32,442 nt of DNA from Flavobacteriia bacterium (GTDB taxonomy: Bacteria; Bacteroidota; Bacteroidia; Flavobacteriales_D; Crocinitomicaceae): assembly GCA_004295165.1 (NCBI GenBank), contig RDZL01000139.1:1-32442 (forward strand). Reading direction: 5' to 3'. Below are positions 7,153 through 14,266 of the stretch, in pieces. The first letter of the stretch is position 1. Every line of letters begins with the position of its first letter. The position numbers were made by a program, and so were the translations under genes. The notes under the pieces were generated by a model, which was not told the origin of the DNA, searched no databases, and saw nothing but the letters and a program-made list of their open reading frames with translations.

Positions 7153-9024
7153 TTAACGCCCTAAATGAACCAAAAGTACAGATATATCGCTTGGCGAAAC
7201 GCCAGATACCCGCGAAGCTTGGCCAATTGTAGCTGGCTGAATTTTCGACAGCTTTTCCCTGGCTTCTATACTCAAACTTTTGACCTTGCCGTAATCAAGC
7301 GTTTCAGGTAATTGTAAATTTTCTAGACGCTGATGTTTTTGAGCTTGTTCTTCTTCGCGGTCGATATACCCTTCGTATTTCAAAAGGATTTCTGCTTGTT
7401 CTACCGCCAAAGGATTTTGAAGTAAAACTTCATTTACAACTTGGGATGTTGGCTCATGAACGGCCACCACATCTGCTAATGAAATGTGTGGTCTTGTGAT
7501 CAGAGAGCTTACTTTCACTTGTTGACTAATTGGTGCCGATTCTTTTTGAACGAGCATTGGATTTGCTTCAGTAGGGCTAATGCCTATTTCTCGAAGCTTG
7601 CTTTTGAGTTGCTTTGTGAGTTGTTGTTTTTGCTCCACTTTCTCAAGAGCTTCGGCGCTAGCCAAGCCTATTTGAAAACCAAGTGGCGTGAGTCTTTCAT
7701 CAGCGTTGTCTTGACGCAACAAAATTCTGAATTCCGCTCTGCTGGTAAACATGCGGTACGGCTCATTGGTTCCTTTGGTTATCAGATCGTCAATCAAAAC
7801 ACCTATATATGCTTCGCTGCGGGTTAGAATAATCGGGTCTGCTTCGATTACCTTTCTATGCGCGTTGATGCCCGCCATTAATCCTTGGCAGGCCGCTTCT
7901 TCATAACCTGTTGTTCCATTGATTTGACCAGCAAAGAAAAGGTTTTCTATAAGTTTGGTCTCTAAAGAGTGTTTCAGTTGGGTTGGTGGAAAGTAATCGT
8001 ATTCGATGGCGTAGCCTGGTCTGAACATTTTGACATTCTCAAAACCCGGGATGGTTTTCATTGCGGCGTATTGTACGTCTTCTGGTAAAGAAGTACTGAA
8101 ACCATTAACGTATATTTCAACAGTATTCCAGCCTTCAGGTTCCACAAAAATTTGGTGCCTGTCTCTGTCGGCAAAACGCGATATTTTATCTTCTATACTT
8201 GGGCAATATCTTGGGCCGCTACTCTTGATCGCGCCATTAAACATGGGGGAGCGGTCAAAACCTGTGCGCAGCAATTCATGTGTTTGCTCATTAGTATAAG
8301 TAATGTGACAAGGGAGTTGCTTGGCTAAAGCATTGGTGTTGGTATAACTAAATTTGGAGGGGTCTGTATCACCATCTTGTATTTCCATTTTAGTATAATC
8401 TAAACTTCTGCCGTCTACTCTAGGTGGTGTGCCGGTTTTCATCCTACCGGCTTCAAAACCGAACTGAACCAATGATTCTGTCAACCCTGTAGCTGCTTTC
8501 TCACCCGCTCTTCCCCCTCCGAATTGCTTTTCACCAAGATGAATAAGTCCGTTTAAAAAGGTGCCATTTGTAAGTACTACGGTAGTTGCGTAGATGGTGG
8601 TTCCCATGGCCATTTGAACTCCGACTACTTTGTGGTTTTCAACCACAATTCCAACACACATGTCTTGCCAGAAGTCTACGTTATGGTTTTGCTCTAAAAG
8701 ATAACGCCACTCCAAAGAAAAGAGCATTCTATCATTTTGGGTTCTTGGAGACCACATTGCTGGTCCTTTTGAGCGATTCAACATTCGAAATTGTATGGCG
8801 CTTTTGTCACTCACAATTCCAGAGCCCCCACCAAGTGCATCAATCTCGCGAACGATTTGGCCTTTTGCCACGCCGCCCATGGCTGGATTACAGCTCATCT
8901 GCGCAATGGTATTCATGTTCATTGTAACCAACAACACCTTACTGCCCATTCGTGCAGCAGCATTGGCAGCCTCACAACCAGCATGACCTGCGCCTACAAC
9001 AATTACATCGTATTTATCTAACAT
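7153..9024 (-). CDS. mnmG: tRNA uridine-5-carboxymethylaminomethyl(34) synthesis enzyme MnmG (GidA)
   Basis: The FAD- and folate-dependent subunit that, with the GTPase MnmE, installs the carboxymethylaminomethyl group on wobble uridine 34 of several tRNAs. The 623-residue length is normal. The FAD-binding motif DVIVVGAGHAGCEAA is at the N-terminus. Also seen are CNPAMGGVAKGQIVREIDAL, GRMKTGTPPR, GPRYCPSIEDKI with the conserved Cys, the AGQINGTTGYEEAA block, and the C-terminal helical domain ending SDISVLLVHLGR. It is last in a leftward operon with ybeY, an RsbW-like gene and a DUF4175 gene. A parS site lies nine bases upstream of its start. In many bacteria gidA is an oriC neighbour, which fits the other signals here. 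Confidence 0.97.
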   Translation of the reverse strand: MLDKYDVIVVGAGHAGCEAANAAARMGSKVLLVTMNMNTIAQMSCNPAMGGVAKGQIVREIDALGGGSGIVSDKSAIQFRMLNRSKGPAMWSPRTQNDRMLFSLEWRYLLEQNHNVDFWQDMCVGIVVENHKVVGVQMAMGTTIYATTVVLTNGTFLNGLIHLGEKQFGGGRAGEKAATGLTESLVQFGFEAGRMKTGTPPRVDGRSLDYTKMEIQDGDTDPSKFSYTNTNALAKQLPCHITYTNEQTHELLRTGFDRSPMFNGAIKSSGPRYCPSIEDKISRFADRDRHQIFVEPEGWNTVEIYVNGFSTSLPEDVQYAAMKTIPGFENVKMFRPGYAIEYDYFPPTQLKHSLETKLIENLFFAGQINGTTGYEEAACQGLMAGINAHRKVIEADPIILTRSEAYIGVLIDDLITKGTNEPYRMFTSRAEFRILLRQDNADERLTPLGFQIGLASAEALEKVEQKQQLTKQLKSKLREIGISPTEANPMLVQKESAPISQQVKVSSLITRPHISLADVVAVHEPTSQVVNEVLLQNPLAVEQAEILLKYEGYIDREEEQAQKHQRLENLQLPETLDYGKVKSLSIEAREKLSKIQPATIGQASRVSGVSPSDISVLLVHLGR

Positions 9025-9032
9025 GAGTATTG

Positions 9033-9048
9033 TGTTTCACGTGAAACA
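9033..9048. other. parS centromere-like site 1 (ParB-binding)
   Basis: The 16-base sequence TGTTTCACGTGAAACA is a perfect palindrome and matches the widely conserved chromosomal parS consensus bound by ParB (Spo0J). It lies in the 31-base gap between ybeY and mnmG, nine bases before the mnmG ATG. A given 16-mer is expected about 8e-6 times in a window of this size. Confidence 0.93.
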
Positions 9049-9055
9049 ACAAGGT

Positions 9056-9493
9056 TTAGTTTTCGATTGTTTCACGTGAAACAAATCTGTTTATATAAAA
9101 ATCTTCCTTAGCGCGCATCACTTTAATATCGGCATCCGTTTTGTCCTTGTAACCACATAAGTGCAAAACACCATGGAAAACGACACGGTAGAATTCCAAT
9201 TCATAACTCTGGTTCAAGGACTGCGCGTTATCCTTTACGCGATCTAGAGAAATCATAACATCGCCAGAAACTTCAGGAAACGAAGAATAATCAAAAGTGA
9301 TGACATCGGTAAAATAGTCGTGATTGAGGTATTGCTTATTGACTTCTAACAAGTATTCATCATCGGTAAAGACCAAGCTTAGGTCTTTCAAAACCTTCCC
9401 TTCTTGGATTGCTAAATTTTTTACAGCTTCTTTTAAATCCTTTTTCGAAACGAAACTTGGTATTTTCACACCGAGATTTACTATTGTCGTCAT
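9056..9493 (-). CDS. ybeY: Endoribonuclease YbeY (rRNA maturation factor)
   Basis: YbeY is a metal-dependent endoribonuclease involved in 16S rRNA 3'-end maturation and ribosome quality control. The 145-residue product shows the family core YFTDVITFDYS, SGDVMISLDRV and the zinc-motif region HGVLHLCGYKDKT. The first two ligands are His107 and His111. At the position of the third ligand, His in E. coli (GYDH), this protein has Asp117. The start ATG (9491-9493) overlaps the stop of the RsbW-like gene by four bases (ATGA), so translation is likely coupled. The last residues (VSRET, 138-142) are encoded by a parS site. Family identity is firm. Confidence 0.93.
   Translation of the reverse strand: MTTIVNLGVKIPSFVSKKDLKEAVKNLAIQEGKVLKDLSLVFTDDEYLLEVNKQYLNHDYFTDVITFDYSSFPEVSGDVMISLDRVKDNAQSLNQSYELEFYRVVFHGVLHLCGYKDKTDADIKVMRAKEDFYINRFVSRETIEN
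9068..9083. other. parS centromere-like site 2, inside the ybeY coding region
   Basis: An identical copy of TGTTTCACGTGAAACA whose centre is 35 bases from that of the first. Read on the minus strand it encodes part of the YbeY C-terminus (FVSRET). Two identical sites this close are not chance. Confidence 0.93.
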
Positions 9494-9903
9494 TTATGAA
9501 AATACAAATTTACTACACTACCAGTGTTTAGGAATTCTACTTCGTCTGCGAGATTCTTCATCAGAAAAACACCGCGGCCGCTGTCCTTTAAAAGATTTTC
9601 TGGAGCCGTCGGATCTGGTAATTCTAAGAAACCAAAACCCTTTCCTTCGTCTTTTACCTGAATGCAAAACAGCTCGTTGTGATCACCTACTTTTAATTCG
9701 ACTTTAGCGTCGGGAATATCCTTATTTCCGTGTTGAATAGCGTTGTTAACTGCCTCAGAAACAGCTATTAACACGTTTCCGAAAGCATCTTCTTTCACAC
9801 CAAATTCCTCACAAATACCCCCAACTAATTTCTCAACATCAATAAGTGACTGATAATCAGATGGTAGAACCACTTCTGTAACAATAGAAAATCCTTCTTT
9901 CAT
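9490..9903 (-). CDS. RsbW-like anti-sigma factor / HATPase-domain protein
   Basis: A 137-residue protein that is essentially one GHKL ATPase domain of the serine-kinase anti-sigma type (RsbW/SpoIIAB). Motifs: N-box AVSEAVNNAIQHGN, G1 box VKDEGKGFGF, G2 region DSGRGVFLMKNLADEV. Relatives phosphorylate an anti-anti-sigma partner or hold a sigma factor; no STAS protein or sigma factor gene lies nearby, so its partner is unknown. It sits between a DUF4175 membrane protein (19-base gap upstream) and ybeY (ATGA overlap downstream), and would be expressed with ribosome-maturation and tRNA-modification genes. The domain call is firm, the role open. Confidence 0.88.
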   Translation of the reverse strand: MKEGFSIVTEVVLPSDYQSLIDVEKLVGGICEEFGVKEDAFGNVLIAVSEAVNNAIQHGNKDIPDAKVELKVGDHNELFCIQVKDEGKGFGFLELPDPTAPENLLKDSGRGVFLMKNLADEVEFLNTGSVVNLYFHK

Positions 9904-9922: not shown

Positions 9923-12900
9923 TCACTGATTTAAATAAGCATCTGAACGCTGTTTGTAATATAATTGCAACGCAGGATCGATGGCTTTAATTAATTCCAG
10001 CTCATTCCATTTCGACCTTTTATACTCTTCAAATCGAATTTGGTTACCTTTTTCTACATCTTTTCCGGACTTAGATTCACGCTTATCTTCAAAACCACGT
10101 TTCATGATCGCATCTTCGCTTTCTAATAAGCGCGTAAGAATTTCTTTTTGCCTTTGAATCGTTTGCGGATTTACGCGTTTGAGTAACAAATCTTTTTCCT
10201 GTTCTTCTAATTCCTTCAAAAGCGGATTGAGCTGATTTCCTAACCCTTTTCCTTCCTTGTTCAATTCTTGTTTGAGCTGTTCTAAACGTTGTCTGATAGC
10301 CGTTTGCTCAGCTGCCATTCGGGCCAACTCTTTAGAACCTAAACCTGGTAAGCCCTGACCTGCTTGCCCTTCTTTACCCGGTGCAGAACCCGGTTGCTGA
10401 CCCGGTTTGTTTCCTCCTGGGTTCGAACCTTTCTGCATTTGCTCTAGTTGTTTTTTGAGCATTTCCTTCATGTCCCCGGAAGACATACTCTGACCTGCTT
10501 TTGGCCTACCCTTTCCTGGATTATCACAACTTCCATTACCTTGCATTTGCGAATTCATTTGTTGTTGCATTGACTGCAGCGCTTCATTGAGGAGTAGCGC
10601 TAAATTGTTATATGAAGTCATTACCAATTGCTGGTGTTTCTCTATATCCTTCTTACGGTGATCGTCTATGGCCTCAATAGTCGATTTCTGATGACTCACT
10701 ATTGCATTTAGTTCAGTATCTATAAATGTGGCAATCTTGGGTTGTCTTTTTGCCAAAGCAAGCAAGCTATCTCTAATGATTTTGGTGTCGTCGTTGATGC
10801 GCTGCTGGCGCCTACCTAATTTACGGTAGACAGGATCTTTGGTGCTAATTTTAACGAAATTCTTCTGCGTTTTTTCTTGATCAAAACTTAAATTGATCAA
10901 TCCTTCTAATATGGCCCGCAAACTTTCCATGTCCTCTTCTTGCTGTTCTTTATTGGATTGATTTTGCTTGGCGTTTAATTGAGAAGACATTGCTTTCATT
11001 CCATCAGAAGCAGATTTCTGCTTTTCGCTCGCTTTTTTAGATTTACCTTCTGAAATTTCTTGCTCAGCATTTTGTAGGTCATTAGAAACTTGTTCTTCTA
11101 AGGCATCTAATATGTCTAGATCTAATGGGCGTGCTAAATCCTTATTTAGTTCTTGAACTTCATTGAGCTCTTTTTTAATTTCATTGAATTTTTCATTGAG
11201 CTCTTTTTGTTTTTGGAGGAGGTCTTCCTTGGAGAGTTCTTGATTTTGCTCCTTTAGCTCTTCTTGTTCTTTAGCCAATGCATCTAGTTCTTTTTCTAAA
11301 TCATCGATGCGTTCGTTGACCTGCATTTTCTTCAAAAGTTCAAGACTGCGATCGAGTTGCTTATTCATATCTTCGGTAGACTGCTGCAATTCATCTAGTT
11401 TCTCTTTGGTTTGGTCTTTATCTTGTTCTTTTAAAAGCGATTCTAGTTGCTCTAGGAGCGCTTTTAATTCGTCATCCATCACTTCATTAAGAAGTTGTTC
11501 TAAAAGCTGCTGTTTCTCTAATAATTGCTCATCTAAGGGTGAGAGTTGATTCTTCTGTTCGGTACTTTGTTTGATTTCTTCTAAACTTTCCTGAATTTGC
11601 TGTTGCAATTGTTGTTGTTGCTGCTGTAGCTGTTCTACTTTATTGAGTTTATTCCAATTTGTAGTTTTTGATTGTAGGGCTTCTTTTTTAAACTCTTGTA
11701 CCTCTTTTTGAAACTGTTGCGTTTTTTTGAATACGTCCTGCAATTCGTTTAATTGCTCGGCTTGCTCTTCTTTTCGCTGATCATTTAATTGCTCTAAACT
11801 TGGTAATTTATAGGTTAATGTTTCACTTTTTGTTGCCTTATGACCGTTCACACCATCGTTGTCATACACCACAAAATAATAAGTGATGATGTCGTTTAAT
11901 TGTATTTTTTCTCGTCTGAAATCTACGCCGAAATCAAATTTTTGCAACGTACCTTTAACCGTTTGCACATCTAAGCGTTGGGTTCTCTTTTGTCCGTTTT
12001 CTTGTTCGATGGTATAAACAAATTGAAGTTTACTTAGTCCGTAATCATCTGAAATAGCACCTTGAAAATATTTTCTACCATCTATGAGCGTATCTTGTTC
12101 TTCTTGTACCTCAATTCCAGGATGGGCATCTTTCAATACTTCAATTTTAGATACAACTGTGTCATTTTGTCGTGTTTGTGCATTAGTGAGTACAAACTTT
12201 AAGCGGCCGCTACTTCTGTATTCTTGAGTAAACTGACTATAAATTGGATCGAGATTTTTGATTTTATTTTGCCAAAATAACTGCAGTTTACTAGTGTTTT
12301 TTGTTGCAATCTCCCAACGAACGTTAGTTCCTTCGGGTAAAGTAAGATCACTTGTATTTTCAATAACACGCGCTGGCTTTTGAAGATATTCAGGATAGGA
12401 GCAATAGGCTTTCAGCGTACCTAAAACAGCTTTTCTATTGACACGAATCCATTTATGTTGGCTATTGAATTCATTGGTTGTTAAGAAAAATGAAGTTGTT
12501 TTTTGAAGCTGCTGAATTTTGTATGTAAATGAATTTCGTTTAACTTGTTTCATGAGAAACTTTCCTTGATCAAGGACAATGTAAAGTTGTTTTGGCAATA
12601 AATAATAACCTGGAGCCGGCTTCACTTTAACTTGAATCTCAAGGCTACTGCCTTCTTGAATGCTATTTGGGATCGCTTCAAAAATAAAAACATAAGGATT
12701 AGGTTCTTTGAATTCTTTGGAATACTGTAGTACCCTGTTGGTTCCTTGCGTAAGAATTTGAGGTACAAACCAAGCAACCGCTAGAAATCCAAATAAAACA
12801 GGTAACAAATATTTGAGATATTGTCGTTGGGCTTTGTACTCAATGGCTGTTTCAAAAGAAATGACATTCAATTGATTGGCACGCTGGGCAATGCTTGCTG

Positions 12901-13288
12901 AAATGAGGTCAATATTTCCGATGTGTCCGTCGAGGTCTTGCTGGAGTTGAATAGTGTTCTTTAATTTATCGGCAACCTCCGGAAAAAAAGAACCGATGAT
13001 TTCAGCTGCCTGTAAATGAGAAATTCTTTTGCCAAATGCTGATAAACGACTCAAGGGAATACCTATCCATCGAATGAATAAGTAACTTTGAATGACAATA
13101 AAACTAAAAAAAAGAATAGCCCTAATCAGGATTGGAAAACGACCAAAAAATTCCAGAAAAGATGTAGCTAAAAGTGCCAACAGAAAAAACAACGCAAACA
13201 ATAAACTCCCTCTAATCAATTGATTTTTGTAATACTTCCTGATGAAAGCATCAATTTGATCAATAAGATGGTTGAAAGTCGATTGCAT
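9923..13288 (-). CDS. DUF4175-family large membrane protein with long coiled coil
   Basis: An 1121-residue protein of unknown function that resembles the DUF4175 family. Membrane segments are seen at about residues 27-48, 53-75 and 155-175, before a beta-rich region (about 190-500). Then comes a very long Gln/Glu/Lys-rich coiled coil (about 505-770) with a poly-Gln run (QLQQQQQQLQQQIQ). Next is a second helical region, a Gly/Pro/Gln-rich linker (KGSNPGGNKPGQQPGS and around) and a charged C-terminal helix. The domain order suggests an inner-membrane anchor with an extended scaffold on one side. It is first of a four-gene operon with the RsbW-like ATPase, ybeY and mnmG, and its promoter lies at the edge of the candidate origin. 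DUF4175 membership is judged from architecture, not from a search. Confidence 0.75.
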   Translation of the reverse strand: MQSTFNHLIDQIDAFIRKYYKNQLIRGSLLFALFFLLALLATSFLEFFGRFPILIRAILFFSFIVIQSYLFIRWIGIPLSRLSAFGKRISHLQAAEIIGSFFPEVADKLKNTIQLQQDLDGHIGNIDLISASIAQRANQLNVISFETAIEYKAQRQYLKYLLPVLFGFLAVAWFVPQILTQGTNRVLQYSKEFKEPNPYVFIFEAIPNSIQEGSSLEIQVKVKPAPGYYLLPKQLYIVLDQGKFLMKQVKRNSFTYKIQQLQKTTSFFLTTNEFNSQHKWIRVNRKAVLGTLKAYCSYPEYLQKPARVIENTSDLTLPEGTNVRWEIATKNTSKLQLFWQNKIKNLDPIYSQFTQEYRSSGRLKFVLTNAQTRQNDTVVSKIEVLKDAHPGIEVQEEQDTLIDGRKYFQGAISDDYGLSKLQFVYTIEQENGQKRTQRLDVQTVKGTLQKFDFGVDFRREKIQLNDIITYYFVVYDNDGVNGHKATKSETLTYKLPSLEQLNDQRKEEQAEQLNELQDVFKKTQQFQKEVQEFKKEALQSKTTNWNKLNKVEQLQQQQQQLQQQIQESLEEIKQSTEQKNQLSPLDEQLLEKQQLLEQLLNEVMDDELKALLEQLESLLKEQDKDQTKEKLDELQQSTEDMNKQLDRSLELLKKMQVNERIDDLEKELDALAKEQEELKEQNQELSKEDLLQKQKELNEKFNEIKKELNEVQELNKDLARPLDLDILDALEEQVSNDLQNAEQEISEGKSKKASEKQKSASDGMKAMSSQLNAKQNQSNKEQQEEDMESLRAILEGLINLSFDQEKTQKNFVKISTKDPVYRKLGRRQQRINDDTKIIRDSLLALAKRQPKIATFIDTELNAIVSHQKSTIEAIDDHRKKDIEKHQQLVMTSYNNLALLLNEALQSMQQQMNSQMQGNGSCDNPGKGRPKAGQSMSSGDMKEMLKKQLEQMQKGSNPGGNKPGQQPGSAPGKEGQAGQGLPGLGSKELARMAAEQTAIRQRLEQLKQELNKEGKGLGNQLNPLLKELEEQEKDLLLKRVNPQTIQRQKEILTRLLESEDAIMKRGFEDKRESKSGKDVEKGNQIRFEEYKRSKWNELELIKAIDPALQLYYKQRSDAYLNQ

Positions 13289-13292
13289 AGGT

Positions 13293-13322
13293 TAAAGCTA
13301 CTGTTTCATTTGCTAGCTACAA
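13293..13322 (-). promoter_or_regulatory. Promoter of the DUF4175-rsbW-like-ybeY-mnmG operon
   Basis: On the minus strand a TTG (13320-13322) is followed after exactly 19 bases by TAGCTTTA (13293-13300). That is one mismatch from TAnnTTTG and has canonical Bacteroidota spacing. The ATG at 13288 follows four bases later. Confidence 0.5.
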
Positions 13323-13361
13323 AATTAAAAGCTTAAGCGCTCTTTAATAAGATTAATATAT

Positions 13362-13375
13362 TTCTTTTAAAAGAA
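13362..13375. repeat. 14-base perfect palindrome within the origin candidate
   Basis: TTCTTTTAAAAGAA, symmetrical about 13368/13369, in the most AT-rich part of the spacer. Confidence 0.6.
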
Positions 13376-13415
13376 TTTTTAAAAATATTTACTACTACTA
13401 TTAAGGATGTTCATT

Positions 13416-13424
13416 TGTGTATAA
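13416..13424 (-). other. Perfect DnaA box in the intergenic region
   Basis: Minus-strand TTATACACA matches TTATNCACA at every fixed position. It stands next to long A/T runs and a TACTACTACTATTA repeat at 13390-13403. Confidence 0.5.
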
Positions 13425-13795
13425 TTAGAATGTGTTTTAATTGTTTTTTTGAAATAAGGCTGTTTATGAACATTCTATCCACTATTTTAATCATATAAAC
13501 AATTGATAATAAATTAGATACAGATTAATAAACAAAAAGTTAAAATGATAACTTGTTTAAAAAATATAATGAAAACACGCGTCAAATTGGTTTGAAACTG
13601 GTTGAAAAGCATTGCATAAAGAAAGCTAAAAAATAGTGCGTATATCAAGCCTATTTGAGCTTATACAAAAGAACCATATATCCAAAAAACATTATAAAGT
13701 ATTTTCAACACGTTATAAACGCAAATTGGCAGACAACTGTTTGTAAATGCAACCTACTTATTGAGCTGTAGCGTCATTTATTTTTAGTTTGTTTA

Positions 13796-13809
13796 TAAGT
13801 TTAAACTTA
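13796..13809. repeat. 14-base perfect palindrome upstream of rpiB
   Basis: TAAGTTTAAACTTA, about 29 bases before the rpiB start and overlapping a one-mismatch DnaA box (13790-13798). It could be an operator for rpiB or part of the origin. Confidence 0.6.
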
Positions 13810-13837
13810 AAATAGTACTTAATTTAGCGCAAAAAAG

Positions 13838-14266
13838 ATGATAATTCCAATTGGCTCCGATCACGCTGGTTTTGAAACCAAGCAAATACTCATCGCTCAT
13901 CTAACCGCGTTAGGATACGAGGTAAAGGATTACGGCTGTTATTCTGAACAAAGTATTGATTACCCAGACTACGCACATCCTGTTGCTGCTCATATTGAAG
14001 CCAACCCTGGTAGTCTTGGTATTTTACTTTGTGGATCTGGCAATGGCATTAGCATGACCGCCAATAAACACCAAGCTATTCGTTGTGCACTTTGCTGGAC
14101 GCCAGAAATCGCTGAGCTTGCGCGCCTTCACAACGATGCTAATATCATTTCGTTACCCGCCCGATTTATCTCTGTAGATGAAGCCAAAGAAATGGTAAAC
14201 GTCTTTTTAAATACAGCTTTTGAAGGCGGGCGTCACGCAACGCGCGTAGCTAAAATTTCTTGCTAG
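13838..14266 (+). CDS. rpiB: Ribose-5-phosphate isomerase B
   Basis: Interconverts ribose-5-phosphate and ribulose-5-phosphate in the pentose phosphate pathway, in the cytoplasm. The 142-residue product shows the RpiB signature GSDHAGFETK at the N-terminus. The catalytic Cys65 lies in LLCGSGNGISM and the ring-opening His98 in RLHNDANII. These features separate it from LacA/LacB-type subunits only by degree. It is a single-gene unit pointing away from the candidate origin. A palindrome lies upstream. Its TAG (14264-14266) overlaps the stop of the convergent OmpA-family gene within CTAG. Confidence 0.95.
   Translation: MIIPIGSDHAGFETKQILIAHLTALGYEVKDYGCYSEQSIDYPDYAHPVAAHIEANPGSLGILLCGSGNGISMTANKHQAIRCALCWTPEIAELARLHNDANIISLPARFISVDEAKEMVNVFLNTAFEGGRHATRVAKISC

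What the first reader, a model, noticed from the sequence alone, without database searches (positions are those of the whole stretch)
9033..9083. Twin perfect parS sites 35 bp apart between ybeY and mnmG
Two identical copies of TGTTTCACGTGAAACA, the conserved ParB-binding palindrome, lie at 9033-9048 and 9068-9083. By chance one copy is expected about 8e-6 times in this window. They mark this locus as a likely ParB nucleation centre and suggest that the window is close to the replication origin. No parA or parB is in the window.
Basis: partly seen in the sequence, partly recalled or inferred. Interest (0 to 1): 0.75.

Follow-up and report, generated by a model that had tools for sequence, protein, structure and literature searches.

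The report
Twin chromosome-segregation sites beside replication origin
The two identical 16-letter palindromes are real docking sites (parS) for the bacterial chromosome-segregation protein ParB, kept next to the same gene throughout this bacterial family and in most of its phylum, and they mark where chromosome copying starts; the sites are of a well-known kind, but their fixed position far from dnaA and parAB, with one copy written into a protein's tail, is a useful detail.

Summary
Confirmed. Two exact TGTTTCACGTGAAACA sites lie at 9033-9048 and 9068-9083, the only matches (up to 2 mismatches) in this incomplete MAG (Crocinitomicaceae, Flavobacteriales). One correction: the second site is not intergenic; it lies in the last codons of ybeY and encodes the tail VSRET. 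Of 30 ybeY loci fetched from the genus without reference to parS, 29 carry two sites here and all carry at least one. Where YbeY residues match, parS codons are identical in 86/86 comparisons against 46% elsewhere, so the constraint is on DNA. ParB occurs in 44/51 genus genomes; its absence here fits an assembly gap. In a near-complete relative, fourfold-site GC skew changes sign at the block holding parS (16/16 negative, then 14/14 positive); dnaA and parB lie far away. A length-conserved, 25% GC gap 4.2 kb away (13289-13837), enriched in DnaA-box-like motifs, is the best oriC candidate. Across Bacteroidota, parS abuts mnmG in 21 of 29 sampled genomes from 28 families. The mechanism is ordinary ParABS; the conserved mnmG anchoring apart from dnaA and parAB is the interesting part.

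The parts
9033..9048 (.). parS site 1, exact 16-bp palindrome TGTTTCACGTGAAACA, in the mnmG 5' leader (ends 8 bp before the mnmG ATG)
9068..9083 (.). parS site 2, exact palindrome, inside the ybeY 3' end; encodes V-S-R-E-T on the minus strand
7153..9024 (-). mnmG (gidA), the gene that parS abuts across most of the phylum sample
   Evidence: Pfam PF01134 E 1.4e-165; synteny
9056..9493 (-). ybeY (endoribonuclease); Pfam domain ends at residue 136 of 145, the parS-encoded tail follows
   Evidence: PF02130 E 3.8e-28
9490..9903 (-). RsbW-like HATPase gene in the conserved block
   Evidence: PF13581
9923..13288 (-). 1121-aa coiled-coil protein (weak DUF4175 match below cut-off), conserved neighbour between parS and the candidate oriC
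13289..13837 (.). candidate oriC: about 550-bp noncoding gap, 25% GC, 532-551 bp long in the window and 11 close relatives, footprint TGTTCATATGTGTATAA, DnaA-box-like motifs
13416..13424 (-). best DnaA-box-like site in the gap, TTATACACA (1 mismatch), conserved in most close relatives
13838..14266 (+). rpiB, far border of the candidate oriC
   Evidence: PF02502 E 1.7e-57

Best explanation
The palindromes are two chromosomal parS sites forming the (probably only) centromere of this chromosome, a few kilobases from oriC. By established ParABS biochemistry, a ParB dimer would bind each palindrome, load CTP, close into a clamp and slide onto flanking DNA to build the partition complex; ParA would then move the newly copied origins apart. 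Shown here: site identity, conservation, DNA-level constraint, ParB with parS-type specificity residues in relatives, and coincidence with the GC-skew switch in a near-complete relative. Inferred: ParB binding, clamp loading and segregation in this organism, and that the AT-rich gap 4.2 kb away (13289-13837) is the oriC itself. Two sites probably give a more reliable loading centre; spacing varies (24-50 bp) with no fixed helical phase, so they most likely act independently rather than as one composite operator.
For: Exact twin sites, nothing else in the assembly. Of 30 ybeY loci fetched without reference to parS, 29 have two sites and all have at least one, at YbeY identities from 100% down to about 50%. 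parS codons identical in 86/86 residue matches against 738/1588 elsewhere. 49/50 good genus genomes have a site with up to 1 mismatch. ParB in 44/51; G067 ParB aligns to solved Spo0J/ParB structures and keeps R173 and G201, the parS-determining residues of PMC7383237. Fourfold GC skew in G262: 16/16 blocks negative up to and including the parS block, 14/14 positive after; the switch is also at parS in G181 and near it in G109. Candidate oriC gap: and a DnaA-box cluster in the equivalent gap of G109. CTP-clamp mechanism: PMC7053999, PMC8367383 (abstracts).
Against: The MAG itself contains no detectable ParA or ParB. One 99%-complete genus member (G082) has ParB but no parS with up to 1 mismatch and no ybeY hit; not resolved. 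parAB is not next to parS as in many model bacteria. The skew test was done on relatives and on sampled 20-kb blocks, not on this fragmented genome. Relatedness of the sequences inflates the codon and motif statistics. No binding experiment.
Confidence: 0.95

Rival explanations
1. The palindromes are DnaA boxes and form part of oriC itself: Ori-Finder's authors read this same 16-mer next to gidA in Bradyrhizobiaceae as two DnaA boxes TGTTTCACG.
For: PMC2275245 states this for ten Bradyrhizobiaceae genomes; the sites here are also next to gidA and at the skew switch.
Against: The 16-mer is the published parS consensus (PMC10197239) and relatives carry a ParB with parS-type specificity residues. 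More ordinary DnaA-box-like motifs cluster in the AT-rich gap 4.2 kb away (TTATNNACA 50 observed against 8.6 in shuffles). The half-site TGTTTCACG differs from TTATCCACA or its complement at several positions.
Confidence: 0.03
2. An operator of a transcription regulator: the palindromes contain CACGTG and lie in the mnmG leader, so they control mnmG or ybeY expression.
For: Site 1 ends 8 bp before the mnmG ATG; ParB spreading could also silence neighbours.
Against: In other families the site lies 3' of mnmG, or in or near rsmG (gidB), with the same sequence, so position relative to a start codon is not kept; the sequence is the universal parS.
Confidence: 0.01
3. The sites belong to a plasmid or integrated mobile element.
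For: parS sites also occur on plasmids (general knowledge).
Against: The window carries housekeeping genes (mnmG, ybeY, rpiB; by inspection also fumarase, isocitrate dehydrogenase and polA), and the mnmG-to-rpiB block is conserved across the genus.
Confidence: 0.005
4. Chance or an assembly duplication.
For: Two identical copies 35 bp apart could come from a local misassembly.
Against: The same pair at the same place in 29 of 30 independently assembled loci, with diverged flanks and sometimes single-base differences between copies.
Confidence: 0.005

Closest known systems
Chromosomal ParABS centromere (B. subtilis, Caulobacter, Pseudomonas type), parS consensus TGTTTCACGTGAAACA
   Same: Identical 16-bp site, near the inferred origin; ParB in genus members with the ParB fold and R173/G201 specificity residues.
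   Different: In the relatives parAB is far from parS (for example 1.64 Mb in G181; about 2.1 Mb in the 4.55-Mb G109, i.e. the other side of the chromosome). One of the two copies is embedded in the ybeY coding tail. No canonical bacterial SMC passes the family cut-off in 9 genomes.
gidA-linked palindrome/oriC of Bradyrhizobiaceae as listed in PMC2275245
   Same: Same palindrome, next to gidA (mnmG), at the skew switch.
   Different: Different phylum; there the palindrome was interpreted as DnaA boxes.
oriC of Bacteroidetes far from dnaA (Prevotella intermedia, PMC4755523; gut Bacteroidetes, PMC10197239)
   Same: Origin unlinked to dnaA; PMC10197239 places origins next to parS clusters by skew.
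   Different: Neither passage read ties the origin to mnmG; that anchoring across families was measured here.

Membership tests
Chromosomal parS (ParABS centromere) | Matches the 16-bp palindromic parS consensus | tested here: met
   Two exact matches; consensus as used in PMC10197239
Chromosomal parS (ParABS centromere) | A cognate ParB is encoded in the same genome | tested here: inconclusive
   Not in this 75%-complete MAG (adjacent dapB also missing); in 44/51 genus genomes, 29/30 high-quality ones
Chromosomal parS (ParABS centromere) | ParB has residues that select parS over the Noc site (R173, G201) | tested here: met
   G067 ParB, SKSRSHIAN...VTMGHAR in register with N178 and R204; tested in a close relative, not in the MAG
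Chromosomal parS (ParABS centromere) | Sites lie close to the replication origin | tested here: met
   Skew switch at parS in G262, G181 and, weakly, G109; transferred to the window by synteny
Chromosomal parS (ParABS centromere) | ParB binds the site in vivo | not testable with these tools
   Needs ChIP-seq or EMSA
oriC (candidate at 13289-13837) | AT-rich noncoding region at the skew minimum with clustered DnaA boxes | tested here: inconclusive
   25% GC, conserved length, motif enrichment and a box cluster in the G109 equivalent, but no exact TTATCCACA in the window and boxes sparse in the most diverged relatives
oriC (candidate at 13289-13837) | Replication starts there | not testable with these tools
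   Needs marker-frequency analysis or a plasmid replication assay
DnaA boxes / oriC element (rival) | Match to TTATCCACA-type box | tested here: not met
   The only matches with up to 1 mismatch in the window are at 1978, 6135, 13416, 23373 and 25995, none at the palindromes

The most novel reading that the evidence does not exclude
In Bacteroidota the centromere was fixed beside mnmG (sometimes beside rsmG) early in the phylum and has stayed there while dnaA and parAB moved away, so parS-mnmG, not dnaA, is the general origin landmark of the phylum; in the Crocinitomicaceae genus studied the centromere has even fixed part of YbeY's C-terminal sequence.
Probability: 0.6. Interest if true: 0.45.

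Novelty: new member of a known kind. Interest (0 to 1): 0.33.

Why it matters
It gives a simple, testable origin landmark for a phylum in which dnaA is known not to mark the origin (PMC4755523, PMC10197239), usable even on fragmented MAGs. It also shows a DNA-level constraint (a centromere) shaping the tail of an unrelated, conserved protein. A compact oriC-parS candidate within 5 kb is now available for experiment in Crocinitomicaceae.

Tried and rejected
DnaA-box scan of the window alone: no enrichment (5 found, 7.9 expected); only comparison of relatives revealed the candidate gap. GC skew within the window is too noisy to place an origin. tRNA and Rfam scans of the window: nothing. Helical phasing of the twin sites: spacings from 24 to 50 bp fit no common phase, rejected. 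The twin pattern (spacing 33-37) occurs in many phyla, so the twin layout by itself is not distinctive. Livny et al. 2007, the main parS survey, is not held, so I could not check whether the mnmG anchoring was already tabulated there. Literature searches for parS with Bacteroidetes, Flavobacterium or gidA found no statement of it.

Full report
OBSERVATION. Two exact copies of TGTTTCACGTGAAACA lie at 9033-9048 and 9068-9083. Allowing 3 mismatches, shuffled windows give 0.31 matches on average; exact copies are expected about 8e-6 times. In the whole 1.59-Mb assembly (259 contigs, 75% complete) these are the only matches with up to 2 mismatches. mnmG (7153-9024) and ybeY (9056-9493) are both on the minus strand and were confirmed by Pfam. 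Site 1 lies in the 31-bp gap and ends 8 bp before the mnmG ATG. Site 2 lies inside ybeY and encodes V-S-R-E-T, three residues before the stop. The YbeY Pfam domain ends just before this tail.

CONSERVATION. ybeY loci were fetched from the genus by protein similarity, without reference to parS. Of the 30 loci read (the window's own included), 29 have two parS sites (up to 2 mismatches) at the same place and the other has one, although YbeY identity falls to about 50%. Spacing ranges from 24 to 50 bp, commonly 33-37. In 19 YbeY proteins aligned, wherever a residue of the VSRET tail matches the window's, its codon also matches: 86 of 86, against 738 of 1588 at other matching residues (Fisher p about 3e-28, inflated by relatedness; in the ten most diverged, 47/47 against 305/702). 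The constraint is therefore on DNA, not only on protein. Among genus genomes of at least 90% completeness, 49 of 50 have a site with up to 1 mismatch, usually exactly two at this locus.

TAXON. Contigs of the relatives G067, G308 and G048 agree in length and sites with named records JAIPCC010000013.1, JAURNL010000062.1 and JAIXUE010000026.1, labelled Crocinitomicaceae or Cryomorphaceae MAGs, so the window is most likely from a Crocinitomicaceae species (Flavobacteriales).

PARB. The MAG has no ParB hit. A query of ParB, ParA and DapB from the close relative G067, which are neighbours there, found only paralogous ATPase fragments; since dapB is missing as well, a gap in the assembly is the simplest reason. 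44 of 51 genus genomes encode ParB, 29 of 30 of the good ones. The G067 ParB matches solved Spo0J/ParB structures (E 9e-52). Using the numbering of PMC7383237, anchored on K171-S172, N178 and R204, it has R173 and G201, the residues for parS rather than the Noc site, with H179 and K184.

ORIGIN. Three relatives with long contigs were sampled in blocks of 10-20 kb and skew was measured at fourfold-degenerate sites. In G262 (same genus) all 16 blocks up to and including the one with parS (1.1186 Mb) are negative and all 14 after it are positive. In G181 (another genus of the family) skew turns positive at the 130-150 kb block holding parS (147.5 kb), and 12 of 13 blocks stay positive to 1.8 Mb. 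In G109 (complete, 4.55 Mb) the signal is weak, but the change lies at 4.34-4.36 Mb, with parS at 4.347 Mb. dnaA lies 570 kb from parS in G262 and about 1.9-2.0 Mb away in the others; parB is 1.64 Mb away in G181 and on the other side of the chromosome in G109. That the origin is commonly far from dnaA in Bacteroidetes is already known (PMC4755523; PMC10197239).

CANDIDATE ORIC. The order mnmG, parS, ybeY, rsbW-like, 1121-aa coiled-coil gene, gap, rpiB is shared by G262 and G109 and by 19 of 20 genus relatives read; the other lacks rpiB in the stretch read. The gap before rpiB (13289-13837 here) has 25% GC against about 42% in the window, is 532-551 bp long in the window and 11 close relatives, and carries a footprint TATTAAGG.TGTTCATATGTGTATAA. 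TTATNNACA motifs number 50 in 20 gaps against 8.6 in shuffles (related sequences, so not independent). In G109 five DnaA-box-like sites, one exact, cluster in this gap. I put this region being oriC at about 0.7.

PHYLUM. In the order sample 101 of 299 genomes have exact parS; all 30 fetched loci abut mnmG. In the phylum sample 164 of 296 have exact parS; all 29 fetched loci abut mnmG, on its 5' or 3' side. Because that list covered few families, I took one genome from each of 28 further families, with a second genome for one of them: 21 of 29 first-listed sites abut mnmG. By inspection of the reading frames, two of the other eight are in or near rsmG (gidB), five are near murQ/mfd- or recF-like genes, and one is elsewhere. 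This sample was chosen to contain parS, so it says where parS is, not how often it occurs.

MECHANISM AND NOVELTY. The best explanation is an ordinary ParABS centromere: ParB loads at parS as a CTP-dependent clamp and spreads (PMC7053999, PMC8367383; abstracts), and ParA separates origins. A canonical SMC, the other usual ParB partner, does not pass the family cut-off in any of 9 genomes tested, in line with the report that two gut Bacteroidetes lack known condensins (PMC10197239); how ParB is used without it is open. An earlier reading of this palindrome beside gidA as DnaA boxes in Bradyrhizobiaceae exists (PMC2275245) and is kept as a rival at low weight. The sites are new members of a known kind. 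The conserved mnmG anchoring apart from dnaA and parAB, and the parS-written YbeY tail, are the points of interest; I found no statement of either in the searchable library, but the main survey of parS sites (Livny 2007) was not available.

Noticed in passing
window 13289-13837: 550-bp AT-rich, length-conserved intergenic gap with DnaA-box-like motifs; candidate oriC.
   Followed up: yes
window 9068-9083 / ybeY C-terminus: YbeY ends in a parS-encoded VSRET (or close variant) tail throughout the genus sample; the codons never vary where the residue is kept.
   Followed up: yes
L326-L336, L319-L323 and genus members G163, G112: In other families, and in a few genus members, two parS sites about 1.9 kb apart seem to bracket the mnmG gene, one on each side.
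   Followed up: partly
L352, L355: In two distant Bacteroidota genomes parS lies inside an rsmG (gidB)-like reading frame, encoding FVSRET or MFHVKH peptides.
   Followed up: partly
G082: A 99%-complete genus member with ParB but no parS (up to 1 mismatch) and no ybeY hit; may have lost or moved its centromere, or the region is missing from the assembly.
   Followed up: no
G000, G262, G008, G067, G048, G058, G214, G109, G181: No canonical bacterial SMC over the family cut-off in any of nine genomes; what ParB works with here is unknown.
   Followed up: partly
window 9923-13288: 1121-aa coiled-coil protein with only a sub-threshold DUF4175 match, conserved between the centromere and the candidate oriC.
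   Followed up: no
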